A DNA stretch of 64,000 nt, from NCBI RefSeq assembly GCF_001418255.1, contig NZ_LIPV01000004.1:124001-188000 (forward strand). The letters are read 5' to 3'. A program made the translations under genes and the position numbers. This DNA comes from Thiomonas bhubaneswarensis (lineage in GTDB: Bacteria; Pseudomonadota; Gammaproteobacteria; Burkholderiales; Burkholderiaceae_C). The notes beneath the pieces are model-generated. The model made no database searches, was not told the origin of the DNA, and was given only the letters and a program-made list of their open reading frames with translations. Of this stretch, positions 2,981 to 59,206 are shown piece after piece; the stretch's first letter is position 1, and each line of letters starts with the position of its first letter.

Positions 2981-3070
2981 GGAAAGGTGGCAGAGTGGTC
3001 GAATGTACCTGACTCGAAATCAGGCGTAGGCGCAAGCCTACCGAGGGTTCGAATCCCTCCCTTTCCGCCA
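2981..3070 (+). tRNA. tRNA-Ser(CGA), with encoded CCA
   Basis: Seen: a 90-nt class II tRNA. The acceptor stem pairs GGAAAGG with CCTTTCC, discriminator G and encoded CCA follow, the anticodon arm is CTGA/TCAG with loop CTCGAAA (anticodon CGA, reading UCG), there is a long variable arm, and the T-loop is GGTTCGAATCC. Known: tRNA-Ser 3' ends are frequent integration sites for tyrosine-recombinase islands. An integrase gene starts 160 bp downstream on the same strand, so this tRNA is the likely attachment gene. Confidence 0.97.
3041..3070 (+). other. Putative attL: 3' end of tRNA-Ser used as integration site
   Basis: Inference from context: the T-arm, acceptor 3' strand and CCA of the tRNA lie just ahead of a P4-type integrase, the usual left junction of a tRNA-integrated island. 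I looked for a second copy of the 3' tRNA end (GGTTCGAATCCCTCC) further right and did not recognise one, so attR is either beyond 64 kb or lost; the exact core cannot be set. Confidence 0.5.
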
Positions 3071-3230: not shown

Positions 3231-4409
3231 ATGGGTCTCACCGTGAAGGCTGTTGAGGCGGCCAGGCCGCAGGAGCGGCCCTATAAGCTCACCGACGGCG
3301 GCGGGCTGTATCTCTTCGTGGCGCCGACCGGATTGAAGAGCTGGCGGGCGAATTATGCGCAGGATGGCAAGCAGCGCACACGGACCTATGGCCGCTACCC
3401 GGTCATGAGTCTGGCGCAGGCCAGGGTGGCCCACGTGCAGGCCAAGGGCGCTCCGAACGAGGCAGAGGCCGCCACGCCGGCGCCGAAGGTGGTGCCGACG
3501 TTCAAGGATGTCGCCGAGCAATGGCTCAAGATCAAGCTTCCCGGCCTCTCCAACGGTAAACATCAGGGCCAGGTCGCCGGCACGCTGGAGCGCTTCGCCT
3601 ACCCCGTCATTGGAGCCTTGCCGATCGACCAGATCCGGCGCACGACGCTTGTCGAGGTAGTGCAGGCGGTCCAGACGGGTGGGCGCATTGAGACTGCGCA
3701 TCGCGTGGCCGGACGCATCACTGCCGTGTTCGACTACGCCCAGGACGTCGGTTACATCGAGAGTCACGGTGCCGCCGGTCTTGTGCGGGTTCTCCAGCCG
3801 CGCAAGGTGAAGAAGCCGATGGCCAGCATCCCGCCCGGCGAGACAGGTGCCTTGCTCGCGGCGATTGCCAGCTATGACGAGCGGGTTACACGACTGGGTC
3901 TGCAGCTGCTGGCATTGACCTTCGTGCGCGTCGGCGAGTTGCGCAGCATGCGCTGGGATGAGCTGCGCGAGGACGACGCGGTCTGGGTCGTTCCTGAAAA
4001 CAGGATGAAGGCGGGTTTGCCGCACGTCGTGCCGCTGTCACGACAGGCGCAGGCGGTGCTCGAACAGCTTCGGCTGCTCACCGGCGATCGCGATCTCGTG
4101 CTGGACTCGCCGCTGCGCTCTGGACATGCGCTGTCCGAGAACACCTTTCTGTTCGCGCTCTACCGGCTGGGCTATCGGGGTCGGATGACCGCGCACGGGT
4201 TCCGGGCGCTGGCCTCCACGGTGCTCAATGAGCAATCAGGCTTCGCGCACGACGTCATCGAGCGCCAGCTCGCGCACCGGGAGACTGATGCGGTTCGGGC
4301 GGCGTACAACCGGGCGCAGTATCTTGAACAGCGCCGGGAGCTGATGCAGTGGTGGGCGGACTGGCTGGATCGACAGCGCGAAGCAGATCGCTCACTCGCC
4401 ACCGCGTGA
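3231..4409 (+). CDS. int: Tyrosine recombinase, P4-type island integrase
   Basis: Role: site-specific integration and excision at the tRNA-Ser site. Seen: N-terminal DUF4102-like arm-binding domain (LTDGGGLYLFVAPTGLKSW, residues about 20-38), SAM-like core-binding domain (about 90-170), and a catalytic domain with Arg in FVRVGELRSMRW, the HGFRALAST HxxR box, the LAHRE second His, and the nucleophile Tyr in AAYNRAQYLEQRR. 392 residues, complete. Neighbours: its last 155 bp overlap the convergent AlpA-like gene on the other strand. Inferred: it belongs to the element carrying the tra/trb genes, because no other integrase is seen in the window. Confidence 0.96.
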   Translation: MGLTVKAVEAARPQERPYKLTDGGGLYLFVAPTGLKSWRANYAQDGKQRTRTYGRYPVMSLAQARVAHVQAKGAPNEAEAATPAPKVVPTFKDVAEQWLKIKLPGLSNGKHQGQVAGTLERFAYPVIGALPIDQIRRTTLVEVVQAVQTGGRIETAHRVAGRITAVFDYAQDVGYIESHGAAGLVRVLQPRKVKKPMASIPPGETGALLAAIASYDERVTRLGLQLLALTFVRVGELRSMRWDELREDDAVWVVPENRMKAGLPHVVPLSRQAQAVLEQLRLLTGDRDLVLDSPLRSGHALSENTFLFALYRLGYRGRMTAHGFRALASTVLNEQSGFAHDVIERQLAHRETDAVRAAYNRAQYLEQRRELMQWWADWLDRQREADRSLATA

Positions 4410-19416: not shown

Positions 19417-19752
19417 ATGAAACAGAACGCTTCCCGGACCCACTGGGTGTCCGTCCGCTTCACCGAGACGGATTTGCAGGATTTGTCGGCGCAGGCCAGC
19501 CAGGCCGGCATGTCGCGCTCGGAACTGATCCGGCGACGCGTTCTTCATCGGCCCGTCATCAGCCGCGCCGACGCGAACACCGCCGGGCGCATTGATCAGC
19601 TCGGCCGCTTGATCAAGCACCTCTACCCGAAGGACAAAGGCTGGGCCAGTCCCGAGGAGCGCCGGAAATTCTGGCGCGTTCTTGAAGACTTGCAGCGTAC
19701 CGCCCAGGCTTTGCGCCGGAGGGCGCCATGCTCGCCAAAGTCATCACCCTGA
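19417..19752 (+). CDS. traJ: TraJ-like relaxosome accessory protein
   Basis: Role: binds next to nic and recruits the relaxase. Seen: 111 residues starting MKQNASRTHWVSVRFTETD with a ribbon-helix-helix-like N-terminus (VRFTETDLQDLSAQASQAGM, then SRSELIRRRVL), and a MobC-like helical end. Start: ATG 19417; earlier in-frame starts would run into the oriT region. It overlaps traI by 25 bp, so the two are co-translated. Confidence 0.8.
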   Translation: MKQNASRTHWVSVRFTETDLQDLSAQASQAGMSRSELIRRRVLHRPVISRADANTAGRIDQLGRLIKHLYPKDKGWASPEERRKFWRVLEDLQRTAQALRRRAPCSPKSSP

Positions 19753-21737
19753 AGCACTCTGCAGCCGGCAACGGGTTCGCGCCGGTCATGCGCTACATCA
19801 TGCGCGCCGCCCCCGACAGCGCGTTGCCCGACGGTCACATGCTCGAAGGCGGACACATCAACATCCCTGACGAGGCGCTGTTCTGGGCACTCCATGAAAA
19901 CCGCCTCGCCTATGCCGAAGACGTCGCCAGTGTCCTCGATCGCACGGCCGACGCTTGCCGCCTCAGGGGGCGGTTCCACGGCAACCCGGTCTACCACGTC
20001 GCCATCAACTGGCAGGAGGCCGAACGCCCCACGGCCAGCCAGGCCGAGCGCGCGTGTCGCCATGTGATGCAGTCACTGGGCTACGGCGATCACCAGGCCG
20101 CGTGGGCCATCCATCGCGACACCGACAATGACCACGTGCATCTGGTCATCAACCGGGTGCACCCGGAAAGGTTCCGGGCCGTCAGCCCGCCGTTCAAGAA
20201 GGATTATTTGATCCTCGACCGCTGCATGCGGGAGTTGGAGCTCGAGTTCGGCCACCAACGTGCGAACGGTCCTTTCATCACGCTGGACTCAGACGCCGGT
20301 CCGCAGATCGTGCGCATGAGCCGTGCGGAGCGACGCGAACGCGGGTTGCTGAAGGAACATGGAAAGCCCCGGCTCACGCGTGGCGCGGCTGCAGCAGAAC
20401 ATCGACTTGGATACGCGTCCTTTCAAGCCTGGGTCGCCGGTGCTCCTGCCCGGGACCTGCGCCAGGCTCTTGGCTCCCCGGCACCTACCTGGGCCGACGT
20501 TCACAAGGCGTTGGCCAGACATGGCGTCACCATGCAGGCCAAGGGCTCCGGGCTGGTCGTGACCACACGCCTTCCCGATGGCCGGGTCCTCGCCGGGAAG
20601 GCTTCGCAGCTCGGCCGCTGGGCAAGCAAGGCCGAGCTGGAGAAGCGGCTGGGCGCGTTCGTCCCGATAGGATGCACTCCCGATCTGCCCGCTGTCTATG
20701 CCCTGCACATCGAGGCTGCACGCCGGCAGGTTCAGCCTACGCAGCCGTCATGGGGACGCCTGGGAGACCGGGAGAACGCTTCTTCCTTCTCAGGCACCCG
20801 TCGCGATCCCGATGAACGCGCGTTGCGCAGGCAACAGCGCGCCGAAGCGCGCGCAGCGCTGGCCGATCGGTTCAAGATCGAACAGGACGTTCTGCGCCGA
20901 GACAAACCTCGGCAGCGTGCCGAGATGCGCGAGCGACACCGGAGCGAGCGGGCCGCACTGCAGGCCGAGCAGCGCGAGGCGAGGGCGCTGGCCTACGCCG
21001 CCGCGCGCCGAGATGGCCAGCCGATTGTCGTCGCACAGTCCCTCTGGGCCTGGATGTCGGCGCGGGAGCGCGAAGCACTGCAAGAGCGCCAGGCCGAAGA
21101 GCGCAAGGCGCTTTCTGTCAGCCAGCCGCGCAGCGAGGTCTGGCGCAAGTGGCTTGAGCGTCAGGCCGAGCAGGGCGACGAAGCGGCGCAGGCCGCGCTG
21201 CGCGGCATTCGCTACCGTGAACGTGGGGAAGCCAGGCACCAACGCGATGGCATTGAGGGCGATGAAGTCGAGCCGCTGCGCAAGCTGGTGTTGGCAGGAC
21301 TGGATGCCCAGATCGACCAGCGGCGGCAGCAGGTGCGCTACCGAGACTCCGGCGGTCGGGAGATGTTCACCGACACCGGCCGGCGCATCGAGTTGCACGA
21401 CAAGAGTGCGGACAGCGTGGAGGCCGCGCTTCGCATCGCGGCCCAGAAGTTCGGCGGCCGGGTGGAAATCACCGGAAGCGCCGCGTTTCGGGAGAGGGCG
21501 ACCCGCCAGGCCGTGCGCTTGGGCATCCGGGTAGTCGATGCTGACCTGGCGGCCATCGTGGCGGATGAACAGGCGAGTATGCGCGCAGATCAGACGAGGT
21601 TATCCACAGAATCTGTGGGCGAATCAGGGCGGGGGGCGGGTAAGCCCTTGAAACCCCATGTGGCCTCTGGGTTGCCTGTGGCGAAGGCAGATCAATTGGA
21701 GCGTAACTCGCGTTCCCAGATGGCGAATGGGCTCTGA
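19728..21737 (+). CDS. traI: Relaxase TraI (MOBP family) with LPD7-like C-terminal domain
   Basis: Role: nicks oriT, stays covalently bound to the 5' end and is led through the secretion channel. Seen: motif I Tyr23 in PVMRYIMRA, motif III with the metal-binding histidines HRDTDNDHVHLVIN (about residues 136-149), Arg-rich coiled region (about 360-470), and a C-terminal domain with YRDSGGREMFTDTGRRIELH and AAQKFGGRVEITGSAAFRE (about 537-600) that matches the LPD7 pattern. 669 residues against 732 in RP4. Intact. No traG/virD4 follows, unlike RP4; cargo begins about 230 bp downstream. Confidence 0.95.
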   Translation: MLAKVITLKHSAAGNGFAPVMRYIMRAAPDSALPDGHMLEGGHINIPDEALFWALHENRLAYAEDVASVLDRTADACRLRGRFHGNPVYHVAINWQEAERPTASQAERACRHVMQSLGYGDHQAAWAIHRDTDNDHVHLVINRVHPERFRAVSPPFKKDYLILDRCMRELELEFGHQRANGPFITLDSDAGPQIVRMSRAERRERGLLKEHGKPRLTRGAAAAEHRLGYASFQAWVAGAPARDLRQALGSPAPTWADVHKALARHGVTMQAKGSGLVVTTRLPDGRVLAGKASQLGRWASKAELEKRLGAFVPIGCTPDLPAVYALHIEAARRQVQPTQPSWGRLGDRENASSFSGTRRDPDERALRRQQRAEARAALADRFKIEQDVLRRDKPRQRAEMRERHRSERAALQAEQREARALAYAAARRDGQPIVVAQSLWAWMSAREREALQERQAEERKALSVSQPRSEVWRKWLERQAEQGDEAAQAALRGIRYRERGEARHQRDGIEGDEVEPLRKLVLAGLDAQIDQRRQQVRYRDSGGREMFTDTGRRIELHDKSADSVEAALRIAAQKFGGRVEITGSAAFRERATRQAVRLGIRVVDADLAAIVADEQASMRADQTRLSTESVGESGRGAGKPLKPHVASGLPVAKADQLERNSRSQMANGL

Positions 21738-44083: not shown

Positions 44084-45049
44084 ATGCGCTTCGCCAAGAC
44101 CATCATCGCCCTGGCCATCTCCGTGGCTGCGGGCAGCGCCTGCGCAGGCACGCCGGCCACCGGCGGCTCGCAACCCGAGGCGGGAGCCCAGCCGCCTGTC
44201 TCCCAGCAGACGAGTCGCCAGATCTACGATCTGAAGGAGCCGATTCCTCTGTCCTGGCGGGCGACGTCGGCTGCCGCGCAGACCTGGCTGCAGACCGGCA
44301 ATGCGCCGAGCATGGTGGGCACGAATGGGGAGGTGATGTACGCCTACGGTCAGAGCCAACCGACCATCACCTGCGCCCCGCTGCACATTTGTCTCATCAA
44401 CCTGTTGCCCGGTGAGCACGTCACCAATCTGAGCATTGGCGACAGCGTGCGCTGGCTGGTGCAGACCGCCGACGCAGGACAGACACCGGTTGTGGTCATC
44501 AAGCCGACGGCCGATGGGCTGACCACCAATCTGGCCGTGACCACTGACGCGGGGCGCATCTACTACATGACCCTGGTCAGCGACGCGCACACCTACGTGC
44601 CGCAGATCGGGTTCTACGACCCGCAGCAGCTCGTCATCAACATGCAGAACCAAGCCAGGCGACAACGCGCCGCGGATGCGGCGAAGAAGGACGCGTTGGT
44701 TGCCCCACTCGGGCAGGTTGATCCCTCGACCCTGGACTTCAACTACACCTGCCAGCTCGGTGACGGGCATGCTGACCAAGAGAGCAGTGACCTGATGCCG
44801 GTGCGGGTGTTCGCCGGCGGCGGTCACACCTACCTGCAGATGCCCGAAGGGATGAAGTACACCGACGCGCCGGCGGTGTTCAACGTCAGCAACGACGACA
44901 CCGAGCTGATGAACAGTCGGCTGGTGCACGGCTATTTCATCATCGACGGCCTGCCGCAAAAGTTCAAGCTCGTGGTTGGGGTTGGCAAGGGCTCGCACAG
45001 CGTGACCTGCCGTCACGCGCAACCGACCGCCGGCTTCTGGTCCCGGTGA
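44084..45049 (+). CDS. trbG: TrbG/VirB9-like protein
   Basis: Role: outer-membrane core component of the secretion channel. Seen: 321 residues from ATG 44084 with signal peptide MRFAKTIIALAISVAAGSAC (AxA-like site), N-terminal domain containing PTITCAPLHICLINLLPGEH, and C-terminal VirB9 domain with PVRVFAGGGHTYLQMPEGMK. ATG 44069 is an alternative five codons upstream. Its stop overlaps the GTG-start extension of trbI. Confidence 0.95.
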   Translation: MRFAKTIIALAISVAAGSACAGTPATGGSQPEAGAQPPVSQQTSRQIYDLKEPIPLSWRATSAAAQTWLQTGNAPSMVGTNGEVMYAYGQSQPTITCAPLHICLINLLPGEHVTNLSIGDSVRWLVQTADAGQTPVVVIKPTADGLTTNLAVTTDAGRIYYMTLVSDAHTYVPQIGFYDPQQLVINMQNQARRQRAADAAKKDALVAPLGQVDPSTLDFNYTCQLGDGHADQESSDLMPVRVFAGGGHTYLQMPEGMKYTDAPAVFNVSNDDTELMNSRLVHGYFIIDGLPQKFKLVVGVGKGSHSVTCRHAQPTAGFWSR

Positions 45050-45060
45050 AGGTTGACGCG

Positions 45061-46452
45061 ATGAGCCAGAATCAGGAGTTCGGGCAGGACGACTTCGCCT
45101 CAACGCAGGCCGATGCGACGCTGCTGGCGCAGGACGTCGACGGTGGCACGGCCAAGGGCCGCAAGGGGCTGAGCATCCGCAGCACGCCAGCGGCGGGCGG
45201 CGCCCGTCTGAGCAGGAATTTCAAGAGGGTTGCCTTCATCGCGGGCGGGGCCGTGGCCGGTGGCATGGTGATCGGGATCATGACCGCGGCGAACAAGCCT
45301 TCGGGCCCGGACGAAGGCGATGGCCAGAGCCAGATGGTCGGGCAGACGTCGCCCGACGTCTCGGCCATGCAACGCGCCGCAGAGAGACAGGTGGGCGCCG
45401 CGGCACCGGCGGCGAGCGCGGCCAGCCAGCCTGCGGCCAAGGCCAGCGGGCCGGGGGCGGCGTTGAGCGGTCACGACGCGGCACTGGCGGCCAACGGCAA
45501 CCCACGGCAACTGACTGCAGCCCAGAAATACCACCAGTGGCTGGTCGCGCAGCACTACAAGGGCCTGGAAGGCGCCGTGCTGGCCGCGCAGAGTGCCAAG
45601 TTGTCCAAGACGGCCCCCGAGGGCTCGCCGGCGCTTGGAGCGCAACGGCAACCGCAGGGCGACAAGGCGGACGACTTGCGCCAGCTCGCCGCGGCTGCCG
45701 CCCCGCAGGACCTTGGCAATGCCAACGCCGCGCTGCAAAAGGCGCTGGCCGGGACGCAACAGTCAGGCGCCGCGCCACAATCACCACAACTGGCCGATGC
45801 CGCGTTCCTTGATGCTGCCGCTTCCAAGGTGGACAACGGATACTTGCCTGCCGCCGTGCGGCCGCCGATCGGCCACGATGAGCTGTTCGCGGGCTCCGTA
45901 ATCCCCGCGGTCATGCTGACCGGAATCGACAGCGATCTTCCCGGCAGCATCACCGCCCAGGTGCGGCAGACGGTCTACGACAGCCTCGATCCCGGCGTGG
46001 TATTGATTCCGCAGGGCACTCGCCTGATCGGCGAGTACAGCAGCCAGGTGGCCTATGGCCAAAGCCGCGTGCTCGTGGCCTGGAATCGGTTGATCTTCCC
46101 CAATGGAGCGATGATCGACCTCGAGGGCATGGCAGGCACGGATGCCGAGGGGCAGGCTGGATTCCACGACCAGGTGGACAACCACTACATGCGCGTCTTC
46201 AGCAGCGCCATTCTGATGAGTCTGCTGGGCGTTGGCGCTCAGCTCAGCCAGCCGCAGAACGCCAACGCCCTCACGACGCCGAGCGCCAGCCAGCAGGCCG
46301 CGGCAGCGATGGCCGAGGGGCTCAACAACGTTGGCACCAATGTGCTCAACCGGAACCTGGACATCCAGCCCACGCTGAGCATCCGGCCAGGCTATACGTT
46401 CAACGTGCTGGTCAACCGGACGATGATCCTGCCGCCATACGAGGTGCGGTAG
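45061..46452 (+). CDS. trbI: TrbI/VirB10-like protein
   Basis: Role: energy-transducing component spanning both membranes. Seen: 463 residues from ATG 45061; membrane segment VAFIAGGAVAGGMVIGIMTA (about 60-80), Ala/Gln-rich linker, and VirB10 domain with LFAGSVIPAVMLTGIDSDLP, LDPGVVLIPQGTRLIGEYSS, LLGVGAQLSQ and the end NVLVNRTMILPPYEVR. The last 120 bp of coding sequence are repeated at 51015-51134. GTG 45046 is an alternative start. Confidence 0.96.
   Translation: MSQNQEFGQDDFASTQADATLLAQDVDGGTAKGRKGLSIRSTPAAGGARLSRNFKRVAFIAGGAVAGGMVIGIMTAANKPSGPDEGDGQSQMVGQTSPDVSAMQRAAERQVGAAAPAASAASQPAAKASGPGAALSGHDAALAANGNPRQLTAAQKYHQWLVAQHYKGLEGAVLAAQSAKLSKTAPEGSPALGAQRQPQGDKADDLRQLAAAAAPQDLGNANAALQKALAGTQQSGAAPQSPQLADAAFLDAAASKVDNGYLPAAVRPPIGHDELFAGSVIPAVMLTGIDSDLPGSITAQVRQTVYDSLDPGVVLIPQGTRLIGEYSSQVAYGQSRVLVAWNRLIFPNGAMIDLEGMAGTDAEGQAGFHDQVDNHYMRVFSSAILMSLLGVGAQLSQPQNANALTTPSASQQAAAAMAEGLNNVGTNVLNRNLDIQPTLSIRPGYTFNVLVNRTMILPPYEVR
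46321..46440 (+). repeat. Direct repeat copy 1: 3' end of trbI
   Basis: Seen: 120 bp that recur at 51015-51134 with about five differences (for instance CTGAGC against CTGGGC). This copy is inside the complete trbI and runs up to CCATAC, after which the two copies diverge. Together they bracket the defence cassette 46.9-50.9 kb. Confidence 0.9.
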
Positions 46453-46901
46453 CAGGGTGGAAGTCGCTGGCGTTCCGCATGGTGCCCATTGCTGGGACGG
46501 ACGCCGCACGGTCGGCCGCAGAAGGGGGGAAGGGGGCACCGATCACGGTGAACTCGGGCAACCTGCACCGACAGCCTGATCCCCCGGATAGGGGACACCC
46601 CGTATGTCTGCGTTTGATCGCCTGCGTGACGGACGTGGCCTGTGTCTGCTGAAGCGACGACTTCGCTCGGTCAGGAGTGCGGGCACGGTGGCATCGACGA
46701 GGGCCGTGGCGGCCACAGCCACGCCATCGAGCGCATACAGGTGAACACTTCAACGCGGCTCGCCCGGGCCGGCGACGGCCAGGGACCAACGGTACTGCGG
46801 CCTTTCGGCTTTGCATTCCAGCTTCCTGTCGTTCTGTGAGACAATACAAGTCGTCCGCTTGGATTGCATAAAAAATATAGTGTAATCATATTGTTATCGA
46901 A
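46453..46901. other. Intergenic region before ietA, AT-rich at its right end
   Basis: 449 bp without a convincing gene. Short frames exist on both strands but none has a family or good start. From about 46850 the GC content drops sharply (AAAAAATATAGTGTAATCAT), likely the promoter of ietA and a sign that the cassette came from elsewhere. Confidence 0.6.
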
Positions 46902-48068
46902 ATGTTGGACAAAATTAAGGAAGAGCAATCAGATTTAGCCCAGATGGTTCGTCTGGCTTTGGCCGAGCAGACGGAGGATGTGCGCCTGTTCGCTGCAAGG
47001 CTGGTTCGCAAATACCGTGGTACGGCCCCCGATCTGGCCGAGCAACTTGAGCTGTACCTGAAGTCGAAGCCGGCACGTAGCGTCTCGCCCATGCGCAGGC
47101 TGTCGCCTCCGCGCCCGGAGGCCGGGGCCATGCCTGTTGACGACGAATCTCGACTCTCGCTCCTGAAAGTGTTCAAGGATGATCCGGCGAAACAAACCCC
47201 GCTGTTGTCCAGCGATGTCGATGATGCCTTGAGGCAGCTCATCGAGGAGCGCCGCCAGAGTGACCGACTGCAGGCCATGGGGTTGACGCCGACCCGCTCG
47301 GCCATCTTTGTGGGGCCACCCGGAGTTGGCAAGACACTGACGGCCCGCTGGCTGGCCGCGCAGTTGAATGTGCCGCTGTACGTGCTCGACCTGACCGCTG
47401 TGATGAGCAGCCTGTTGGGCAAGAGCGGGGCGAACCTGCGCGCGGCAATCGATTACGCCAAGCGTGAGCCCTGCGTGCTGCTGCTGGATGAGATCGACGC
47501 TATCGCCAAGCGGCGCAGCGACGACACCGACGTGGGCGAACTCAAGCGCCTGGTCACGGTGATCCTCCAGGAGGTCGATGAATGGCCTGCCAGTGGCTTG
47601 CTTCTGGCCGCGACCAACCATCCGGAGCTGATCGATCCGGCGTTGTGGCGCCGGTTCGATTTGGAGGTCCAGTTCAAGACGCCGGGTGAGCAGTCCATCA
47701 AGGAAGCCCTCAAGCGTTTCCTGGGGCCGGACTACGCCCTTTTTGCTCGCTGGATCGACATCCTGGCGTTTGCGTTCGCCGGGTACTCCTTCAGCGACAT
47801 CGAGCGGGATGTGCAACGCTTCCGGCGCGCCGTGGCCTTGGGCGCTGGCACCGATGCCGATCTGGTGGAGGACTTCATGAAGGCGCGTGCGCTTGCGCTC
47901 GACAAGCAGGGCCGCATCAACCTGGCGGTGATGTTAGCCAAGGAAACGCGCTTGTCCCAACACGCCATCGCGGACGTCACGGGCGTGAGCCGGGACACGA
48001 TCCGGAAGTACACCAACGGTGTGCCGACCGCACGGAAGACCACGGGCCGGAGAAAGGCTGACGCATGA
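46902..48068 (+). CDS. ietA: IetA-like AAA+ ATPase (anti-phage IetAS system)
   Basis: Role: ATPase partner of a subtilisin-like protease in the IetAS defence pair. Seen: 388 residues; Walker A GPPGVGKTLTARWLA (about residues 138-152), Walker B CVLLLDEIDAIAKRR (about 191-205), sensor-like LLLAATNHPELIDPALWRRF (about 235-254), helical lid, and a C-terminal HTH-like SQHAIADVTGVSRDTIRKYT. Its stop overlaps the protease start as ATGA. Known: Gao et al. (2020) reported ietAS from defence islands. Assignment here is from the domain pair and order, not from a database search. Confidence 0.8.
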   Translation: MLDKIKEEQSDLAQMVRLALAEQTEDVRLFAARLVRKYRGTAPDLAEQLELYLKSKPARSVSPMRRLSPPRPEAGAMPVDDESRLSLLKVFKDDPAKQTPLLSSDVDDALRQLIEERRQSDRLQAMGLTPTRSAIFVGPPGVGKTLTARWLAAQLNVPLYVLDLTAVMSSLLGKSGANLRAAIDYAKREPCVLLLDEIDAIAKRRSDDTDVGELKRLVTVILQEVDEWPASGLLLAATNHPELIDPALWRRFDLEVQFKTPGEQSIKEALKRFLGPDYALFARWIDILAFAFAGYSFSDIERDVQRFRRAVALGAGTDADLVEDFMKARALALDKQGRINLAVMLAKETRLSQHAIADVTGVSRDTIRKYTNGVPTARKTTGRRKADA

Positions 48069-50287
48069 ATCGAACCAATTTCCTGATCGGTCGGGGCGAG
48101 TTGCTAACTCACGACATCGTCGGCCCAAGGCGCATGCCTCGCAAGGCCGAGGTCTACACCTTCGCGCAGGCACGGGAGCGACTGACTCCCCAATTCCGCA
48201 GCGCGGCGCAAGCGCTGGATGAACTGCCTGCCGAAGCGTGTCCGGGCGACTTCGCCGTCGCCCGATTGATGATGAATCCCAGCTTCATCGCTCGCTCTTA
48301 CTTCCCGATCGGCCTGTTGCGCAGCACCGGGCTGGAGTCCGTTGGCAGCCGCACTGTCAGGGTCAAACCGCAGGCCTGGACCCGCAAGGGACAACCGCAG
48401 GAAACCACGACGACCGAATTGTTCGTCGCCGGCAAGCGCCAGGCTTTTCGCAACCTCGCCCAGTGGACTGAGACCATCGCCGCGCAGTCTGACGAGGGCG
48501 ACGATCTGGCACACATCGAACAGTTCGCAGCCTTCGCGCCGGCGGAGCGCATCGTAAGCCTGGGCAGTCCGAAGGATCGCTTCTTCGAGGTGGGTCTGCA
48601 TCTGCTGCCAGGTGAAGATCCTGGATTGATTCAGAAGGCCTTTGTGAGGTTTGCCAAGCGTGACGACGTCAATGTCCACAGTGAAGTCGATTTCGTGGCC
48701 GGCAACCTGTGGTTCGTGCCGGTCGAGGGCAAGCCGCGTGACGTTGAGAAGCTAGCCGGTTTCGCGTTTGTCCGTGTGATCCGACCGGTGCCTAAGCTGC
48801 GTGGTATCCGTCCGCTGCAACGCAGCGGTGGTCCTGCGGTGGGGTGCAGCCTTCCCACCGAGCAGGCGCTCTCGTCCGAACCTCGCGTCGCCGTCTTGGA
48901 CGGCGGCTTGCCCAAGCATCACCCGATCGGACCCTGGCTGCGCTCGTATCGCAAGCTCGACGAAGACGCCGACGATGATCCGGACGGCCCGGAGCACGGC
49001 CTGGGCGTGACATCGGCTGTGTTGTTCGGCCCGATCCAGCCCAACGGAGCGGCAGGTAGGCCCTTTGCCCCAGTTGACCATCTTCGCGTGCTCGATCAGG
49101 AAGCAGGGGGCGAAGACCCGCTGGAGCTTTATCGCACGCTCGGCCTCATCGAACAGGTCCTGCTGTCACGTTCCTACGAATTCATCAATCTGAGTTTGGG
49201 GCCTGACCTCGAAGTGCAAGACCAGGAAGTGCATTCGTGGACTTCCGTGATCGACGACTTGCTGAGTGATGGCGACACCCTCATGACCGTAGCCGTTGGC
49301 AACAACGGAGAACGGGACCGCGAACTCGGCTACAACAGAGTGCAGGTTCCGTCAGATTGCGTGAATGCGCTTTCGGTTGGTGCTGCGGATGACACCGGCA
49401 CCGGCTGGGCGCGCGCACCTTACAGCGCGATCGGTCCGGGCCGCAGCCCCGGCGTCGTCAAGCCAGACCTGATGGCGTTCGGCGGCAACCCAGCGGCGAA
49501 ATATTTTCATGTCCTGGCGCCGAACGTGAAGCCGGTGCTGTCGCCGCAATTGGGTACCAGTTTCGCGGCACCGTATCTGTTGCGCAGCGCAGTCGGGATT
49601 CGCGCGATCCTGGGCAGCGATCTGACGCCGCTCGCCATCAAAGCCTTGCTTGTTCATGCAGCGGATCTCGGCGACCACGACCCCATCGAAGTGGGTTGGG
49701 GCAAGATCCCCGAGGACACTCTCGACATCATCACATGTCCGGACGGGGTAGCCAGGGTGGTCTACCAGGGTGAGCTCAAGCCCAGTAAATACCTGCGCGC
49801 CAGCCTCCCACTGCCGAAGGAAGGGTTGACGGGCAATGTGCGCCTGAAGGCGACGTTCTGCTACGCATCGCCCACTGATCCGCAGGATGCCGCGGCCTAC
49901 ACCAAGGCTGGCCTCGAAGTTGTCTTCCGTCCCAACGACGAGAAGGTCAAAGATGGCAAGAGCAATGCGGATACCAAGGGCTTCTTCGACCTGAAGAAGT
50001 TCGCAACAGAACAGGAGCGCCGATCCGATCAGGGTAAGTGGGAAACCGTGCTGCACGGGGCCAAGACCTTCCGAGGTTCCAGCCTGAAGAACCCAGTGTT
50101 CGATATCCACTACAACGCCCGCGACGGCGGCGGACGCGCCACCGGCGCCGAGAGGATCCGCTACGCATTGATCCTGTCGGTTGAGGCTCCGAAGCACGCT
50201 GATCTCTATAACGACATCCTGCGCGCTTACGCCAAGACCTTGGTTCCGATCCAGCCGCAGGTGTCGCTGCCCATTCGGGTCAAGTAG
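48065..50287 (+). CDS. ietS: IetS-like subtilisin-family serine protease
   Basis: Role: presumed effector of the IetAS system; cytoplasmic, no signal peptide. Seen: 740 residues; catalytic Asp279 in VAVLDGGLPKHHP, His311 in GPEHGLGVTSAV and Ser499 in LGTSFAAPYLLRS, with Asn in VAVGNNGERDRE; so the triad is complete. The first 260 residues are unlike classic pro-domains and the C-terminal 200 residues form an extra domain. Co-translated with ietA. Alternative: another AAA/subtilase pair of unknown role. Confidence 0.82.
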   Translation: MNRTNFLIGRGELLTHDIVGPRRMPRKAEVYTFAQARERLTPQFRSAAQALDELPAEACPGDFAVARLMMNPSFIARSYFPIGLLRSTGLESVGSRTVRVKPQAWTRKGQPQETTTTELFVAGKRQAFRNLAQWTETIAAQSDEGDDLAHIEQFAAFAPAERIVSLGSPKDRFFEVGLHLLPGEDPGLIQKAFVRFAKRDDVNVHSEVDFVAGNLWFVPVEGKPRDVEKLAGFAFVRVIRPVPKLRGIRPLQRSGGPAVGCSLPTEQALSSEPRVAVLDGGLPKHHPIGPWLRSYRKLDEDADDDPDGPEHGLGVTSAVLFGPIQPNGAAGRPFAPVDHLRVLDQEAGGEDPLELYRTLGLIEQVLLSRSYEFINLSLGPDLEVQDQEVHSWTSVIDDLLSDGDTLMTVAVGNNGERDRELGYNRVQVPSDCVNALSVGAADDTGTGWARAPYSAIGPGRSPGVVKPDLMAFGGNPAAKYFHVLAPNVKPVLSPQLGTSFAAPYLLRSAVGIRAILGSDLTPLAIKALLVHAADLGDHDPIEVGWGKIPEDTLDIITCPDGVARVVYQGELKPSKYLRASLPLPKEGLTGNVRLKATFCYASPTDPQDAAAYTKAGLEVVFRPNDEKVKDGKSNADTKGFFDLKKFATEQERRSDQGKWETVLHGAKTFRGSSLKNPVFDIHYNARDGGGRATGAERIRYALILSVEAPKHADLYNDILRAYAKTLVPIQPQVSLPIRVK

Positions 50288-50294
50288 TCACACG

Positions 50295-50906
50295 ATGGAT
50301 AACATGAAGACGGCCTTGGAAGAGGGAACCGGAATGACCCTTTGCGAAGGATGCCAGAAGCCCACTCCCGACCATGATCTCGTGCACTATGGCTCGGCTG
50401 ATTCTTTTCGGACGCTTTGCTTGCGGTGCGTCAACCAAGACATGGCGGAACGATGCGACGTTGATTTCGAGCATGTCCAGTTCGAACCGATCACGATGAC
50501 GGATCATGCAGAGGCAGTGCATGAATTCCACTTTTCCACCCGACTGCTCGGAGACATCTGCAGTCTTGAAGCGTTCGAACTGCGAGGTGGGTCACGTAGC
50601 GGCTACCAGTTCCAGGCCATCGGCGACGCCGAGGCGGATCTCTGGGAACTCATGGCGAAGCTGATCGAGCGTATCCGCCGTGCGTTGAGCGTTTCGTACC
50701 TTTGCGAAGATCGCGGCGAATTGTACATCGCAGGCCAGTCTGTGAGTGGACGGATTTCCTGCGAGATGGATGGCGATGGCTTTTTCTCGCCTGCATTGAT
50801 CGTTGACGGGCGCGATATCTCGTGGGAAGAGTTCGGCCGCATGTTGAGCACTTTCGAGGGGTGGCAGTTCAAGCTTCAGATCCTCGACCCGAGCGACGCG
50901 GCGTGA
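50295..50906 (+). CDS. Zinc-ribbon protein of unknown function linked to IetAS
   Basis: Seen: 203 residues from ATG 50295, 7 bp after ietS. N-terminal CEGCQKPTPDHDLVHYG and LCLRCVN give a CxxC/CxxC zinc site (about residues 18-50); then EAVHEFHFSTRLLGDICSLE and GYQFQAIGDAEADLWELMAK; the end SWEEFGRMLSTFEGWQFKLQ is strongly conserved in appearance. I take it to be a family of unknown function that occurs in defence neighbourhoods. Spacing suggests a third component or a passenger of the cassette. Confidence 0.7.
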   Translation: MDNMKTALEEGTGMTLCEGCQKPTPDHDLVHYGSADSFRTLCLRCVNQDMAERCDVDFEHVQFEPITMTDHAEAVHEFHFSTRLLGDICSLEAFELRGGSRSGYQFQAIGDAEADLWELMAKLIERIRRALSVSYLCEDRGELYIAGQSVSGRISCEMDGDGFFSPALIVDGRDISWEEFGRMLSTFEGWQFKLQILDPSDAA

Positions 50907-51014
50907 CAACGCGCAGCCGGTCGTGCAGGGAGGCAGCAGTCAACGCCGTGCAGCGCGAGGCACCGTTCGATTTGGCGAACCTGGCGACGCTCGGGGTGTC
51001 GCCCTAGCGCGTGG

Positions 51015-51134
51015 CTCAACAATGTCGGCACCAATGTGCTCAACCGGAACCTGGACATCCAGCCCACGCTGGGCATCCGGCCAGGCTACGCGTTCAACGT
51101 GCTGGTCAACCGGACGATGATCCTGCCGCCATAC
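51015..51134 (+). repeat. Direct repeat copy 2: truncated 3' end of trbI
   Basis: Seen: 120 bp about 96% identical to 46321-46440, in a frame that runs on without the trbI stop toward the small gene at 51195. It has no upstream trbI sequence, so it is a remnant, not a gene. Likely produced when the cassette inserted or recombined at the trbI end. Confidence 0.9.
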
Positions 51135-51194
51135 CGGATGCGGGAGCGGTGGGGTTGTCGAAGGAGGTGGCGCGGGGGAGGGCTGGCGTCTAGA

Positions 51195-51458
51195 ATGGAG
51201 GCCATGAGTTCCCGGACCAAACAGCCTGCTCGGAAGACGGCAAGAGCTTCGCGCCGCAGGGCCGTCGTTTCCGCCGCGCGAGCGGTAGAGAGCGTCGCTC
51301 GCGTGCCTGGCGTTCTTCTCACTGGACAGGCACTGCTCGATGATATGGTTGCTTATCGAAAGCAGGTCACGTCGTCTCCGGAGGCGGCACAGAGCTTCCT
51401 CGTGCGGCTTGGTGTATTGACCAAGGGCGGGAAAGCCAAGACGTTGATTCGTGGCTAA
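51195..51458 (+). CDS. Putative antitoxin, small basic protein
   Basis: Seen: 87 residues; basic Ser/Arg/Lys-rich N-terminus, then TGQALLDDMVAYRKQVTSSP and AAQSFLVRLGVLTKGGKAKT, a helical ending resembling proteins encoded just upstream of ART-like toxins. ATG 51195 (GGAGGG upstream) or 51204. It overlaps the next gene by 8 bp. Inferred antitoxin from size, position and coupling. Confidence 0.6.
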   Translation: MEAMSSRTKQPARKTARASRRRAVVSAARAVESVARVPGVLLTGQALLDDMVAYRKQVTSSPEAAQSFLVRLGVLTKGGKAKTLIRG

Positions 51459-52059
51459 CGACTGGGCGCTCTATCAGCGCCACACGGCTTTTGTGCTCGG
51501 CTTTCATGGCACGGAAGACGCGATTGCTCAAGACGTGATCGGCAGGAGCATCGCTCACCTTGAGCATTCCCGGGGTCGATTCGAGTGGCTCGGGCACGGC
51601 ATCTACTTCTGGGAAGGCGACCCTCAGCGCGCACTCGAATGGGCGCAGGATGGGAATGCAAAGAAGAAGATCAAGAATCCAGGCGTCGTCGGCGCCATCA
51701 TCGATCTTGGTTTATGCCTTGACCTGACCACGCGTACGGGCCTCGATGAGATCGCCCAGGCGCACGCCACTCTCGTCGAGACCTATGCGGCTTCAGGCCA
51801 GCCCGTGCCGGACAATACAGGGGGCAAGGATCGCTTCAAGCGCGAGTTGGATTGCCAAGTGATCCAGGCGCTTCATCTGTACCGGAAAGAAAACGGGTTG
51901 GCTCCTTACGATTCCGTGCGAGCTCCTTTCCCTGAAGATGAGCCACTCTACGACGGCGCGGGCTTCCGGAAGCGCAATCATATTCAGATTGCGGTGATCA
52001 ATCCGGAATGCATCAAGGGGTCCTTCCGCCCGATCCCAGGGGCGTCGGCGCACACGTAG
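51451..52059 (+). CDS. Putative ADP-ribosyltransferase-fold toxin
   Basis: Seen: 202 residues from GTG 51451; FVLGFHGTEDAIAQDVIG with the His-Gly-Thr start of an ART fold, WLGHGIYFWEGDPQRALEWA with GxGIYF, and acidic residues further on (ETYAASGQPVPD; FPEDEPLYDGAGF). The H-Y-[E/Q] layout is that of PARP/diphtheria-toxin-like ADP-ribosyltransferases. Neighbouring small gene upstream overlaps it, as in toxin-antitoxin pairs. Inferred: NAD-dependent toxin; target unknown. Confidence 0.6.
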   Translation: MANDWALYQRHTAFVLGFHGTEDAIAQDVIGRSIAHLEHSRGRFEWLGHGIYFWEGDPQRALEWAQDGNAKKKIKNPGVVGAIIDLGLCLDLTTRTGLDEIAQAHATLVETYAASGQPVPDNTGGKDRFKRELDCQVIQALHLYRKENGLAPYDSVRAPFPEDEPLYDGAGFRKRNHIQIAVINPECIKGSFRPIPGASAHT

Positions 52060-54069: not shown

Positions 54070-54552
54070 TCAGCGCTCGAACGGGCTCAGCGTCGCGACG
54101 TGGACCAGCCACTTGCGGATTGCTGCTTCGTCCGCAGCGCTCACGCCGCTGAGCAAGTCCCGCTCGACCGCGTCCACGCCCTTACGACAGTGCGCCAAGA
54201 GTTGCTGGCCGGACTCGGTGACCTCCATCTGCAGGACGCGGCCGTGTGTCGCGTGATGCTTGCGCTGGAGTGCGCCTGATCGCTCCAGATTGCCGACGAT
54301 CACGCTGACGGTCTGCGGCGTCAGCAGAGACAACCTGGCGACGTCCGCGCCGGACGCGCCAGGATAGGCAACCAACATGGTCAGCACGGCGAACTGGGGC
54401 GGCGTCAACCCGACTTCGGACAGTGCCCGCTCCATTCTCTGCCGATGCGCGACCTCGGCTTGGCGAAGCAGGTAGCCGATGTGTCCCGCATGCCCACGCT
54501 TGCCCTCGCCGGCTTCCGGAATGACTGCCGCTCCCGCTGGCTTCTTGCGCAT
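54070..54552 (-). CDS. MarR-family transcriptional regulator
   Basis: Seen: 160 residues from ATG 54552; winged HTH (TPPQFAVLTMLVAYPGASGA, ARLSLLTPQTVSVIVGNLER, about 52-95). Divergent from the AhpD-like gene at 54624 across two identical 12-bp palindromes, so it likely represses both. Ligand unknown. Confidence 0.93.
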   Translation of the reverse strand: MRKKPAGAAVIPEAGEGKRGHAGHIGYLLRQAEVAHRQRMERALSEVGLTPPQFAVLTMLVAYPGASGADVARLSLLTPQTVSVIVGNLERSGALQRKHHATHGRVLQMEVTESGQQLLAHCRKGVDAVERDLLSGVSAADEAAIRKWLVHVATLSPFER

Positions 54553-54556
54553 AGTG

Positions 54557-54593
54557 TTCGAATTCGAATACGATGACATTGTTCGAATTCGAA
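54557..54593. promoter_or_regulatory. Tandem MarR operators
   Basis: Seen: perfect 12-bp palindrome TTCGAATTCGAA at 54557-54568 and again at 54582-54593, 25 bp apart, inside the divergent promoter of the MarR gene and the AhpD-like gene. Confidence 0.85.
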
Positions 54594-54623
54594 TATTACG
54601 CTCATGCACGATCAGGAGCCCCC

Positions 54624-55121
54624 ATGACCAACTCCCCAAGACTGGATTACGCGTCCTATGAGCGCCTGGCACCGGAAACGGTCGTCGCAATGCGGGCGCT
54701 CGGACGCGCCGTTGCCGAGTCCGGGCTGGACCAGCCGCTCACGGAACTGATCAAGATCCGCGTCTCGCAGATCAACGGCTGCGCCTTCTGCCTCCAGTAC
54801 CACCTCAATCAAGCCCGCAAGCTGACGACGCCGGTCGCAAAGCTCGATCTCGTCGCGACGTGGGGCGAAGCGGACATCTTCTCGGCGCGTGAGCGCGCCG
54901 CCCTGGCGTGGGCCGAGGCGTTGACGAGGATGTCCATGGCTCCGATCGACGATGCCGACTTCACCGACCTTCTCGAGCACTTCGTGATGGAGGAGGTCGC
55001 GCACCTGACAGCTGCCGTTGCCAACATCAATGCCTGGAACCGGATCGCTGGAGGACTGCAATTCGCTCCACCGATTCCGGCCGCGCACCTTCTTCAAGGG
55101 GAGCAGGCGCATGCGCGTTGA
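54624..55121 (+). CDS. AhpD-like alkylhydroperoxidase / CMD-family protein
   Basis: Role: peroxidase-like reduction of organic hydroperoxides. Seen: 165 residues from ATG 54624 with GGAG upstream; redox pair CAFC (Cys53, Cys56) followed by LQYHLNQARKL with the conserved His, matching the AhpD core. Under the MarR operators; followed by a GNAT gene overlapping by 11 bp. Confidence 0.92.
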   Translation: MTNSPRLDYASYERLAPETVVAMRALGRAVAESGLDQPLTELIKIRVSQINGCAFCLQYHLNQARKLTTPVAKLDLVATWGEADIFSARERAALAWAEALTRMSMAPIDDADFTDLLEHFVMEEVAHLTAAVANINAWNRIAGGLQFAPPIPAAHLLQGEQAHAR

Positions 55122-55554
55122 CGCCTGCACGGTGGAGGCGGTCGAGACCATCGAGGCTGCGCGTGCCGTCTACCCCCTGATGGCCCAGCTGCGTCCGCAT
55201 CTCGCCGATGCCGGAGAGTTCCTGGAACGTTGGGCGCGCCAATGCGAGGACGGATACCGACTCGTCGCGCTCTACGCGGAAGGGACACCAGTGGCCCTCG
55301 CAGGATATCGGCAGCAAGAGAACCTTGTTCACGGAACATTCCTCTATGTCGATGACCTTGTGACGGATGCGGGTTGCCGAAGCAAGGGCTATGGCGAGCG
55401 ACTGATCGTGTATCTGCTGGACCAGGCCCGCGTGTTGGGATGTGCCAAGCTCATGCTCGATACACCCATGAGCAATGCGCTTGGCCATCGTTTCTACTTC
55501 CGGTGCGGCCTGCTCGCGACGGCGCTTCGGTTCGTCACGGCCGTCACGGGCTGA
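55111..55554 (+). CDS. GNAT-family acetyltransferase
   Basis: Seen: 147 residues; PVALAGYRQQENLVHGTFLY, DDLVTDAGCRSKGYGERLIV with acetyl-CoA loop RSKGYG, and C-terminal NALGHRFYFRCGL. Coupled to the AhpD-like gene. Complete; next is the azoreductase fragment after 5 bp. Confidence 0.9.
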   Translation: MRVDACTVEAVETIEAARAVYPLMAQLRPHLADAGEFLERWARQCEDGYRLVALYAEGTPVALAGYRQQENLVHGTFLYVDDLVTDAGCRSKGYGERLIVYLLDQARVLGCAKLMLDTPMSNALGHRFYFRCGLLATALRFVTAVTG

Positions 55555-55741: not shown

Positions 55742-57652
55742 GTGCGCCGGGAGACCTGCAAGGAGCAGAGGGTGCAAGTCCCTTGCAGTGAAGGCGTAGC
55801 GAACCACACTGGCCCCGAGTCATGCGCAGTGCACCGCGAGGTGCCCGGCGAAGCGTTGACAGGGGTACGTGCGGGCCAGCCATTGAGCCGCGAAAGAATT
55901 TCTTCCCAGGGTGCCGACGCCGTCCGATTTGTGGAAGGCTACATGGTCGCGCGCGCTATCGCGAGCGCACGACCGACCCGGCGTGGTCGTAGAACCCGGC
56001 ACGCGCGCACGCTCCTTGAACGGAAACCGGGAGATCTCCAACCCGACCGTCGCCGCCAGTCTTGGCCCGACGGCCCGCATCGGGAAGGCGAGGAGCCATA
56101 GCCGATGACGCACGGGTTGGAGAAGTCGGACTCCGTCGTAGTAGCGATGAAACCTGCGAACAAGGCCGGCTCTCCGGCTTCGGAGTGGGTGGAGCCAAGG
56201 ACGGGGACCAAGGGAAACGCGGAAGACTCTCGCACGCGCCGGACTCAGAGCCGGGCAAGCGTGTCCCCGGGGCTCGACCGCGTACGGCAAGCCGCAAGGC
56301 TGAGGAAGAAGCAACCGCTCACGGCCTTGCTGCACCACGTTACCGTCGACCTGCTCCGTGAGGCGTTTCTGGCGCTCAAACGCCGTGCCGCACCCGGAGC
56401 GGATGGCGTCACGTGGCAGGACTATGAGCAAGGACTTGAAGAGCGCCTCGGCGATCTTCATGCTCGTATCCATCGTGGCGGGTACCGGGCGCAGCCCGTG
56501 CGGCGACGGTTCATACCGAAGCCGGACGGGCGCCAGCGCCCGCTGGGCATTGCCGCGCTGGAGGACAAGGTCGTTCAGCGTGCAGTCGTCGCCGTGCTCA
56601 ATGCGATCTACGAGGAAGACTTCCTCGGCTTCTCGTACGGGTTCAGGCCCGGTCGCGGCCAGCATGACGCATTGGACGCCTTGTGCGTGGCGATCAAGGG
56701 CAAGCGAGTGAACTGGTGCTCGACGCTGACATCAAGGGCTTCTTCGACGCGGTCGACCATGACTGGTTGCTGCGCTTCGTGAGGCACCGGGTCGGTAACG
56801 AGCGCATCGTCCGGTTGGTGAGCAAATGGCTCACGGCCGGCGTCCTTGAAGACGGGAACTGGAGCGCTGTGCAACAGGGGACGCCACAAGGCGCGGTGAT
56901 CTCGCCGCTGCTGGCCAACGTCTACCTGCACTACGTCTTCGATCTGTGGGCTCAGCAATGGCGACGGCGCGAGGCGACCGGCGACATGATCGTCGTGCGC
57001 TATGCCAGACGATCTGGTCGTCGGCTTCGAGCATGAAGCTGACGCACGCCGCTTCTGGGACGCGATGCGAGAGCGGTTCGCGCGCTTCGCGCTCGAACTG
57101 CATGGGGAGAAGACCCAGCTGCTGGGGTTCGGCCGCTACGCGATCGAGCATCGGCAGCGCAAGGGTCTGGGCAAACCACCAACATTAAACTTCCTGGGGT
57201 TCACGTTCATTTGTGGGCGGTCGCGGCGAGGTGCATTCCTGCTGCGCCGGCATACACGACGTGACCGCATGCGCCTGGCGCTACAGGCGGTCAAAGATGG
57301 TTTGCCCCAACGGCGCCAGCATCCCCGAACAGGGGAAATGGCTGCGCACGGTTGTGACCGGCTACTTCGCGTACCACGCGGTGCCCACCAACGCGCAGGC
57401 CGTCTGCGCGTACCAGCACCACGTCTTGTCACTCTGGCGACGCTCCCTGGAGCGTCGCAGCCAGAAGGCAGGCGTCACGTGGGCGAAGATGGATCGACTC
57501 GCCGCCGCATGGCTCCCGCCCCCGCACGTGCTTCATCCCTGGCCGAAAGACCGGCTCGCCGTCCGAACCCGAGGTAGGAGCCGTATGCCTTAATTGGGCA
57601 CGTACGGATCTGTGCGGGAGGGCGGGCAACCGGCAGGCATCCCTACCGCGAT
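55742..57652 (+). mobile_element. Group II intron with degenerate reverse transcriptase
   Basis: Seen: 5' end GTGCGCC with the downstream GGTGCAAGTCCCTTGCAG region typical of bacterial group II introns; an internal RT frame; domain V GAGCCGTATGCC...GCACGTACGGATC at about 57578-57611; and a 3' end around 57652 after a domain VI-like hairpin. About 1.9 kb. It sits just beyond the azoreductase fragment. The RT has frameshifts, so autonomous movement is unlikely, while the RNA fold may be intact. Confidence 0.88.
56105..57593 (+). pseudogene. ltrA: Group II intron reverse transcriptase/maturase, frameshifted
   Basis: Seen: frame A (56105-56782) carries RT blocks with GADGVTWQDYEQGL, RRRFIPKPDGRQRPLGIAAL and YGFRPGRGQHDALDALC; a one-base deletion near 56712 moves the sense to frame B (LVLDADIKGFFDAVDHDWLL, GTPQGAVISPLLANVYL); one extra A at about 57007 breaks the YADD catalytic box (TATGCCAGACGAT instead of TATGCCGACGAT); frame C continues DDLVVGFEHEADARRFW; a third shift near 57320 returns to the C-terminal group II maturase part. 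At least three frameshifts. Ends within domain V. Confidence 0.9.
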
Positions 57653-59199: not shown

Positions 59200-59206
59200 G
59201 GTCGGC

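What the first reader, a model, noticed from the sequence alone, without database searches (positions are those of the whole stretch)
46321..51134. Defence cassette bracketed by a 120-bp direct repeat of the trbI 3' end
trbI is complete up to its stop at 46452, but its last 120 coding bases reappear at 51015-51134 with about five changes and no upstream trbI sequence. Everything in between (ietA, ietS, zinc-ribbon gene) is unrelated to conjugation and starts with an AT-rich promoter. This looks like cassette insertion that keeps trbI functional while leaving the original 3' end behind, so the end of trbI may be a cargo hotspot.
Basis: seen in the sequence. Interest (0 to 1): 0.75.

Follow-up and report, generated by a model that had tools for sequence, protein, structure and literature searches.

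The report
Displaced trbI end marks cargo port
A mobile DNA element in a Thiomonas-like bacterium carries an anti-phage gene pair between its last conjugation gene and a leftover copy of that gene's end, and two related elements carry the same kind of leftover, so this spot looks like a repeated entry point for passenger genes.

Summary
Confirmed: the last 40 codons of trbI up to Pro-Pro-Tyr (46321-46440) recur at 51015-51134 with 5 of 120 mismatches; no other internal repeat of the element was listed at E<=1e-6. The window lies in a 68-kb ICE between tRNA-Ser (2981-3070) and an exact 17-bp attR copy at 70973. In relatives trbI is the last backbone gene: for 10 of 16 trbI loci I could place a right end, 95 bases to 24.5 kb from trbI. 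Five have at most 0.8 kb there, five carry 5.7-24.5 kb of largely different cargo. Orphan trbI ends, same orientation, occur in 3 of those 5 and 0 of the other 5 (p=0.17): here, in G305 (71 bp, about 70 bp before attR) and in G167 (36 bp). They end at or near the gene end but start at different points, and no recombinase was found between the tails. So the trbI end is a real cargo port, and the repeat is most likely a scar of 3'-end displacement between related ICEs, not site-specific insertion. Only ietA+ietS of the cassette are shared elsewhere, and no PF02534 coupling protein was found in the ICE. Interpretation partly supported.

The parts
2981..3070 (+). tRNA-Ser(CGA), insertion site of the ICE; attL 17-mer at 3054-3070 (exact attR copy at 70973-70989, beyond the window)
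3231..4409 (+). tyrosine integrase (Arm-DNA-bind_3, Phage_int_M, Phage_integrase)
   Evidence: 85% identical to the integrase of element E1
19728..21737 (+). TraI/MobP-type relaxase
   Evidence: NF041893, 387 bits over cut-off 250; PF03432
37357..46452 (+). trb block; trbE (38135-40585) and trbI by models, the other genes by order and DNA similarity to related elements
45046..46452 (+). trbI, last backbone gene
   Evidence: PF03743 E=6e-63
46319..46460 (+). tail A: trbI 3' end, first copy of the repeat (core 46321-46440)
46453..46901 (+). unassigned stretch between trbI and ietA; no long match in 60 genomes or in plasmids
46902..48068 (+). ietA, AAA ATPase of the IetAS anti-phage pair
   Evidence: PADLOC IetA E=9.3e-82; PF00004
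48065..50287 (+). ietS, S8 subtilase of the IetAS pair
   Evidence: PADLOC IetS E=5e-45; PF00082
50295..50906 (+). DUF7685/DUF7686/DUF7713 gene (start uncertain)
   Evidence: scanned from 50331; not matched beside ietAS in G026 or G043
51013..51152 (+). tail B: orphan trbI 3' end, second copy of the repeat (core 51015-51134)
51204..51458 (+). 84-aa gene, first of a two-gene toxin-antitoxin-like module
   Evidence: frame; a short gene also precedes the partner in the two plasmids checked
51451..52059 (+). 202-aa partner gene
   Evidence: relatives in 65 plasmid records; weak PD-T4-9_A match E=1.3e-5; no Pfam or NCBIfam match

Best explanation
The window lies in an ICE whose last backbone gene, trbI, ancestrally sat next to the right attachment site. 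The interval between trbI and attR is where cargo enters. Cargo arrives by recombination between related ICEs. One junction is homologous, in conserved backbone DNA, so a complete trbI is kept or remade. The other is illegitimate: the far end of the cargo (here the IetAS pair and a DUF gene) is joined into the last ~140 bases of the other parent's trbI, leaving that 3' end behind as an orphan in front of its old downstream sequence. Shown: both tails, the intact trbI frame, the ICE ends, empty and filled relatives, two more orphan ends. Inferred: the recombination route, the illegitimate nature of the far junction, and which tail is older.
For: The repeat is close and unique in the element. 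A ~90-bp right end with a tRNA-Ser 3' end is shared by W, E1, G122, G167a, G044, G011 and G005; distances from trbI to a right end are 95 to 24,533 bases in 10 of 16 loci. Orphan trbI ends in 3 of 16 loci, all on the trbI strand, 0 on the other; 0.0 expected at up to 1 mismatch in 253 kb over 40 simulations. In E1 the orphan lies about 70 bp before attR, where trbI ends in G122. In G167a the orphan is followed by BrnT/BrnA and the right end; G011 has trbI, a RelE-like/HTH pair, then the right end; here tail B is followed by a TA-like pair. Right limits lie at or within a few codons of the gene end; left limits differ (142, 71, 36 bp). E1 joins backbone segments 91-95% identical to E2 with an integrase 85% identical to W's and unrelated to E2's, so such exchanges occur. 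Homology-facilitated illegitimate recombination is proposed for displaced T6SS and rhs gene ends (PMC5361080, passages) and was seen at 3x10^-10 per recipient in E. coli conjugation (PMC3240628, abstract).
Against: Only three cases; p=0.17 for orphans in cargo bearers against the rest. G005 (18.4 kb of cargo) and G044 (11.7 kb) have no orphan end at up to 4 mismatches of a 23-mer. In the window tail B is 19.8 kb from attR. Tails A and B are nearest relatives in a 120-bp tree, with weak support (0.71), so in-place duplication is not excluded; and tail B, the orphan, is nearer to G005 (10 differences) than tail A (13), so it shows no excess decay. No relative with the window's exact empty site was found. 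Polarity is unknown: in E1 the orphan may have come in with an attP-integrase swap.
Confidence: 0.55

Rival explanations
1. Two related ICEs, or an ICE and a decayed relative, once sat in tandem at the tRNA-Ser gene. A large deletion from the cargo of the first into the trbI of the second fused them, leaving only the 3' end of the second trbI and its right end (CIME-like accretion and decay).
For: Gives the same final structure. Tandem elements, CIMEs and gene-free microCIMEs of 130-220 bp are described at gene 3' ends (PMC7563491, passages). G000 holds a second close trbI and G305 holds four. With the E1 attR variant as query one 3-mismatch site lies between the tails of E1 (63649).
Against: No copy of the tRNA 17-mer at up to 3 mismatches lies between the tails in W or E1, nor of the G167a att 17-mer in G167a; the one E1 site above is matched by chance in 7.5% of 200 shuffled queries. 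E1 joins an E2-like backbone, whose element sits at tRNA-Val, to a tRNA-Ser integration module, which tandem insertion at one site does not explain by itself.
Confidence: 0.25
2. A site-specific recombinase inserts cassettes into the trbI 3' end, each cassette bringing a replacement 3' end, as many integrative elements do at gene ends.
For: The layout (intact gene, cargo, displaced 3' end) looks like it; three cases in one orientation.
Against: No recombinase among the genes called between the tails: 3 of 3 genes scanned in W, 7 of 8 in E1 (a 52-aa frame not scanned), 13 of 13 in G167a. Left limits differ (142, 71, 36 bp) and the three cargoes are unrelated in content.
Confidence: 0.06
3. Simple in-place duplication of the trbI end during cargo insertion or repair (a long target duplication).
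For: Tails A and B are each other's nearest relatives over 120 bp (5 differences).
Against: Divergence is uneven: 5 of 120 in the core but 7 of the next 20 bases (Fisher p=2e-4), which a single recent copy does not predict, though selection on trbI could contribute. In E1 the orphan is 93.0% to E2's tail and 91.5% to its own and its last codons match E2 and E3 rather than its own trbI. Lengths vary from 36 to 142 bp.
Confidence: 0.12
4. The orphan tail is kept because it does something at the right end (terminator, promoter, integrase arm region).
For: In 4 of 10 delimited elements trbI ends within 173 bases of the right end.
Against: Nothing was tested; length varies from 36 to 142 bp; G044 and G005 have a right end without a trbI tail nearby; the window's tail B is 19.8 kb from attR.
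Confidence: 0.02

Closest known systems
3'-end (C-terminal) displacement in rhs and T6SS effector-immunity loci, with homology-facilitated illegitimate recombination as proposed route (PMC5361080, passages)
   Same: Incoming DNA anchored by a conserved region, a new 3' part plus cargo added, the old 3' end pushed downstream and kept; repeated events can build arrays.
   Different: There the displaced ends belong to effector genes and the immunity genes are what is kept; here it is the conserved end of a conjugation structural gene, and the displaced bit has no start of its own.
Tn4371-family ICEs with trbBCDEJLFGI (PMC2789088, passages and part 2 of section 6)
   Same: IncP-like trb block ending in trbI; modular cargo.
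   Different: The hotspot described there lies between relaxase and traR/traG and the att site is TTTTTCAT-like; here the port lies between trbI and a tRNA-type attR, and no PF00437 match (TrbB) was found on contig C4.
CIMEs and microCIMEs in ICE accretion (PMC7563491, passages)
   Same: Decayed remnants of a second element at an ICE end, some very short.
   Different: CIMEs are flanked by att sites; none was found between the tails.
IetAS anti-phage pair (PADLOC IetA/IetS; NCBIfam IteA/IteS)
   Same: AAA ATPase plus S8 subtilase, adjacent and overlapping.
   Different: Scores lie below the NCBIfam equivalog cut-offs (234 of 510 and 118 of 900 bits): a divergent member.

Membership tests
Integrative and conjugative element (ICE) | Integrase gene beside a tRNA att site with a matching second att | tested here: met
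   tRNA-Ser 2981-3070, integrase 3231-4409, exact 17-bp copy at 70973
Integrative and conjugative element (ICE) | Relaxase and mating-pair genes | tested here: met
   TraI/MobP relaxase, TrbE, TrbI
Integrative and conjugative element (ICE) | Coupling protein (T4CP) | tested here: not met
   PF02534 matches in G000 only on contigs C16 and C5; other coupling-protein families not searched; related element E1 has one
Tn4371-family ICE | trbBCDEJLFGI order | tested here: inconclusive
   TrbE and terminal TrbI present; no PF00437 match on contig C4; the rest not checked gene by gene
Tn4371-family ICE | TTTTTCAT-like att site | tested here: not met
   att is the 3' end of tRNA-Ser
IetAS defence system | AAA ATPase IetA next to S8 protease IetS | tested here: met
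   PADLOC E=9.3e-82 and 5e-45; adjacent frames
IetAS defence system | Protects against phage | not testable with these tools
   needs a plaque assay
Site-specific insertion at a gene 3' end | Recombinase carried by the inserted unit | tested here: not met
   none in 3 of 3 (W), 7 of 8 (E1) and 13 of 13 (G167a) called genes scanned with Pfam
Site-specific insertion at a gene 3' end | Common core with fixed limits | tested here: not met
   left limits 142, 71 and 36 bp from the right limit
3'-end displacement (rhs/T6SS type) | Intact gene upstream, old 3' end retained downstream on the same strand | tested here: met
   3 of 16 loci, all same strand
3'-end displacement (rhs/T6SS type) | Homologous near junction and illegitimate far junction | tested here: inconclusive
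   parents not in hand; junctions compared by eye only
CIME / microCIME | Flanked by att sites | tested here: not met
   no tRNA 17-mer at <=3 mismatches between the tails in W or E1, none in G167a; one 3-mismatch site to the E1 attR variant, chance 7.5%

The most novel reading that the evidence does not exclude
The trbI-attR interval is a dedicated cargo port of this ICE group, filled stepwise by gene-end displacement. Each entry can leave a trbI tail of another allele, so orphan tails act like growth rings that order cargo acquisition: IetAS here, a PhzF/GNAT/isochorismatase block in G305, an amide-transporter/acetyl-CoA-synthetase-like block in G167.
Probability: 0.4. Interest if true: 0.7.

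Novelty: new variant of a known kind. Interest (0 to 1): 0.55.

Why it matters
If right, defence and metabolic genes enter these ICEs at a predictable point, the junction of the last conjugation gene with the right attachment site, by a route that needs no recombinase of its own. Short orphan ends of a conserved gene could then be used to find and order cargo acquisitions in other ICEs, and gene-end displacement, discussed so far for rhs and T6SS loci, would extend to conjugation modules.

Tried and rejected
Rejected: chance repeat; origin from the second close trbI on contig C5 (18-19 of 120 differences); a recombinase-driven cassette (no recombinase found, no common limits); the whole 4.7 kb as a conserved cassette (only ietA-ietS shared with G026 at 82% and G043 at 71%).

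Led nowhere: plasmid search with the trbI end (16 records, none covering 80% of the query) and with 46453-46901 (no match); the peptide in front of tail B (the first used a wrong frame); trbI in viral contigs (no relative); class-wide trbI search (1 of 369 genomes at E<=1e-100, the window's own); family of G305 (1 of 67 at E<=1e-70, G305 itself); the window's family (4 of 299 at E<=1e-80, all already in hand). The order-wide search (96 of 399 genomes with a match; as a rule only 4 candidates per genome scored) listed the window's tail B as the only tail-only match. Partial matches there in G281 (at a contig start) and G438 were not examined, and small pieces in G217 overlap a larger match. That search missed the two shorter orphans, which turned up in DNA fetched around close relatives, so orphan ends elsewhere are under-counted.

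Dropped from the 16-locus table: L038 (4.2-kb contig, one tail); the more distant L040, L042, L043 and L100 (G337); and trbI matches weaker than E=1e-100. Six of 16 have no placed right end: C5, G009, G012, E4, G288a, G288b. Right ends of G122, G167a, G044, G011 and G005 rest on similarity to those of W and E1, and that of G167b on an adjacent tRNA-Asn; no attL was seen for these six. E1's attR matches its tRNA end at 14 of 17 bases.
Full report
Observation. The repeat is real. Bases 46321-46440, the last 40 codons of trbI up to Pro-Pro-Tyr, recur at 51015-51134 with 5 mismatches; 7 of the next 20 bases differ, and on the left the similarity stops abruptly at 51013. In a self-comparison of the element it was the only repeat listed at E<=1e-6, and of 71 called gene ends only trbI has a long close second copy. 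A second close trbI lies on contig C5 of the same genome, but it differs from the two tails at 19 and 18 of 120 bases, while the tails differ from each other at 5.

Setting. The window is G000:C4:124001-188000. I take the genus to be Thiomonas because G009, placed in the same genus, has a contig of the same length and trbI match as the Thiomonas isolate STB_93 record. tRNA-Ser(CGA) at 2981-3070 is followed by a tyrosine integrase, and the last 17 bases of the tRNA recur exactly at 70973-70989. The element carries a TraI/MobP relaxase, TrbE and TrbI, but PF02534 and PF00437 give no match on contig C4, whereas the related element E1 has a TraG-like protein. The element may therefore not transfer alone.

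Comparison. I gathered 16 trbI loci: W (window), C5, G005, G009, G044, G011, G012, G122, two in G167 (a, b), four in G305 (E1-E4) and two in G288. The coding sequence is conserved up to Pro-Pro-Tyr; the last codons and the downstream DNA then differ between most elements, G005 and G009 being the clear pair that share what follows. A ~90-base right end that closes with a tRNA-Ser 3' end is shared by W, E1, G122, G167a, G044, G011 and G005. E2 and E3 end in repeats of a tRNA-Val end, and G167b abuts a tRNA-Asn. Distances from the Pro-Pro-Tyr codon to the right end are 95 (G122), 109 (G167b), 151 (E3), 173 (E2), 803 (G011), 5752 (E1), 11731 (G044), 16932 (G167a), about 18470 (G005) and 24533 bases (W). 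trbI is thus the terminal backbone gene, and the interval to the right end is a cargo port: 4 of 10 essentially empty, 1 of 10 with only a RelE-like/HTH pair (the RelE match is below Pfam's cut-off), 5 of 10 with 5.7-24.5 kb. The cargoes are largely different, but some blocks are shared (below).

Orphan ends. A scan of 253 kb downstream of the 16 trbI genes for the conserved end, up to 4 mismatches, found three copies, all on the trbI strand and none on the other, against 0.0 expected at up to one mismatch and 0.375 at exactly four. W has 142 columns at 92%; E1 71 bp, 91.5% to its own tail, 93.0% to E2's and 90.1% to E3's; G167a 36 bp up to the stop, 32 of 36 identical to its own trbI. In E1 the orphan ends about 70 bp before attR, with the arm-like sequence between, just where trbI ends in G122. 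In G167a it is followed by BrnT and BrnA and the right end; the same BrnT/BrnA and right end occur in G044 without an orphan. In W it is followed by an overlapping 84-aa/202-aa pair. All three are among the five cargo bearers (3 of 5 against 0 of 5, p=0.17). Right limits lie at or within a few codons of the gene end; left limits differ.

Cargo. IetA and IetS are recognised by PADLOC but score below NCBIfam's equivalog cut-offs. In G026 and G043 DNA similarity covers window 46893-50280 only, ietA plus ietS, in other surroundings; 5 of 100 relatives searched hold an IetS match. E1's cargo has PhzF, FMN-binding, GNAT, hydrolase, isochorismatase and AraC-type genes; G167a's has an amide-type ABC transporter, amidase-like, CbbQ, AmiR and acetyl-CoA-synthetase-like genes. 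No recombinase appeared among these. E1's block matches window 30963-34366 in the opposite orientation, and parts of G005's cargo match window 27331-30536 and 54072-55533, so blocks move between positions.

Mechanism. The data fit recombination between related ICEs with one homologous junction, which leaves a complete trbI, and one illegitimate junction between the far end of the cargo and the other parent's trbI end. This is the route proposed for displaced T6SS effector and rhs gene ends (PMC5361080, passages); recombination of that kind was seen, at very low frequency, in E. coli conjugation (PMC3240628, abstract). E1 shows that exchanges happen: five segments are 91-95% identical to E2, but its integrase is unrelated to E2's and 85% identical to W's. 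Because attP and integrase adjoin the right end in the circular form, E1's orphan may equally have entered with an integration-module swap; I cannot say which parent was resident. Against the reading: tails A and B are nearest relatives, with weak support (0.71), and the orphan tail B is nearer to G005 (10 differences) than tail A (13), so it shows no excess decay; two cargo bearers have no orphan.

Rivals. A deletion between tandem ICEs gives the same product. No tRNA-end 17-mer at up to 3 mismatches lies between the tails in W or E1, and none in G167a. One 3-mismatch site to E1's attR variant does lie inside E1's cargo; shuffled queries give such a hit in 7.5% of trials. Site-specific insertion is disfavoured by the missing recombinase and the varied left limits. 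In-place duplication is disfavoured by the uneven divergence (5 of 120 against 7 of 20, p=2e-4), though selection on trbI could add to that.

Literature. Tn4371-type ICEs are described with a hotspot between relaxase and traR/traG (PMC2789088, passages and part 2 of section 6). One Thiomonas paper reports tra or trb genes in five islands and one ICE (PMC4589449, passages). The listings showed no title or abstract start about orphan trbI ends, and one search found no paper; only open-licence papers are held.

Verdict. Observation confirmed. Interpretation partly supported: the hotspot and the left-behind end are backed by independent cases; a defined 4.7-kb cassette and retained function are not.

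Noticed in passing
window 57958-64000 and on to 68640 (L006 1958-12640): Aminotransferase, methyltransferase, M20 peptidase, FAD oxidase, TauD, DHDPS-like and YcaO proteins and a small predicted protein with repeated ESAI units: possibly a peptide natural-product cluster.
   Followed up: partly
window 51204-52059: Overlapping 84-aa and 202-aa genes. The 202-aa protein has relatives in 65 plasmid records, all below 60% identity, preceded by a short gene in the two records checked. Looks like a toxin-antitoxin pair.
   Followed up: partly
G000 contig C4, the ICE: No PF02534 coupling-protein match in the element; matches lie on contigs C5 and C16, so transfer may depend on another element.
   Followed up: partly
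L094, L110-L115 (G305 elements E1 and E2): E1 and E2 share backbone segments at 91-95% but have unrelated integrases and different tRNA sites: an integration-module swap with a breakpoint near the integrase 3' end.
   Followed up: partly
window 27331-34366 and 54072-55533: Cargo blocks that lie right of trbI in G005 and E1 sit elsewhere in this ICE, E1's in inverted orientation.
   Followed up: partly
window 56105-57593: Reverse-transcriptase frames in pieces; one piece (56683-57033) matches RVT_1 at E=4e-15. By eye a broken group II intron.
   Followed up: partly
L004 1-3245 (G000 contig C5): A second trbI in the same genome is followed by DsbD-like and MerR genes on the opposite strand, again other cargo at the trbI end.
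   Followed up: partly
L045 near 6163 (G009): The trbI frame of G009 reads past the stop position of its close relative G005.
   Followed up: no
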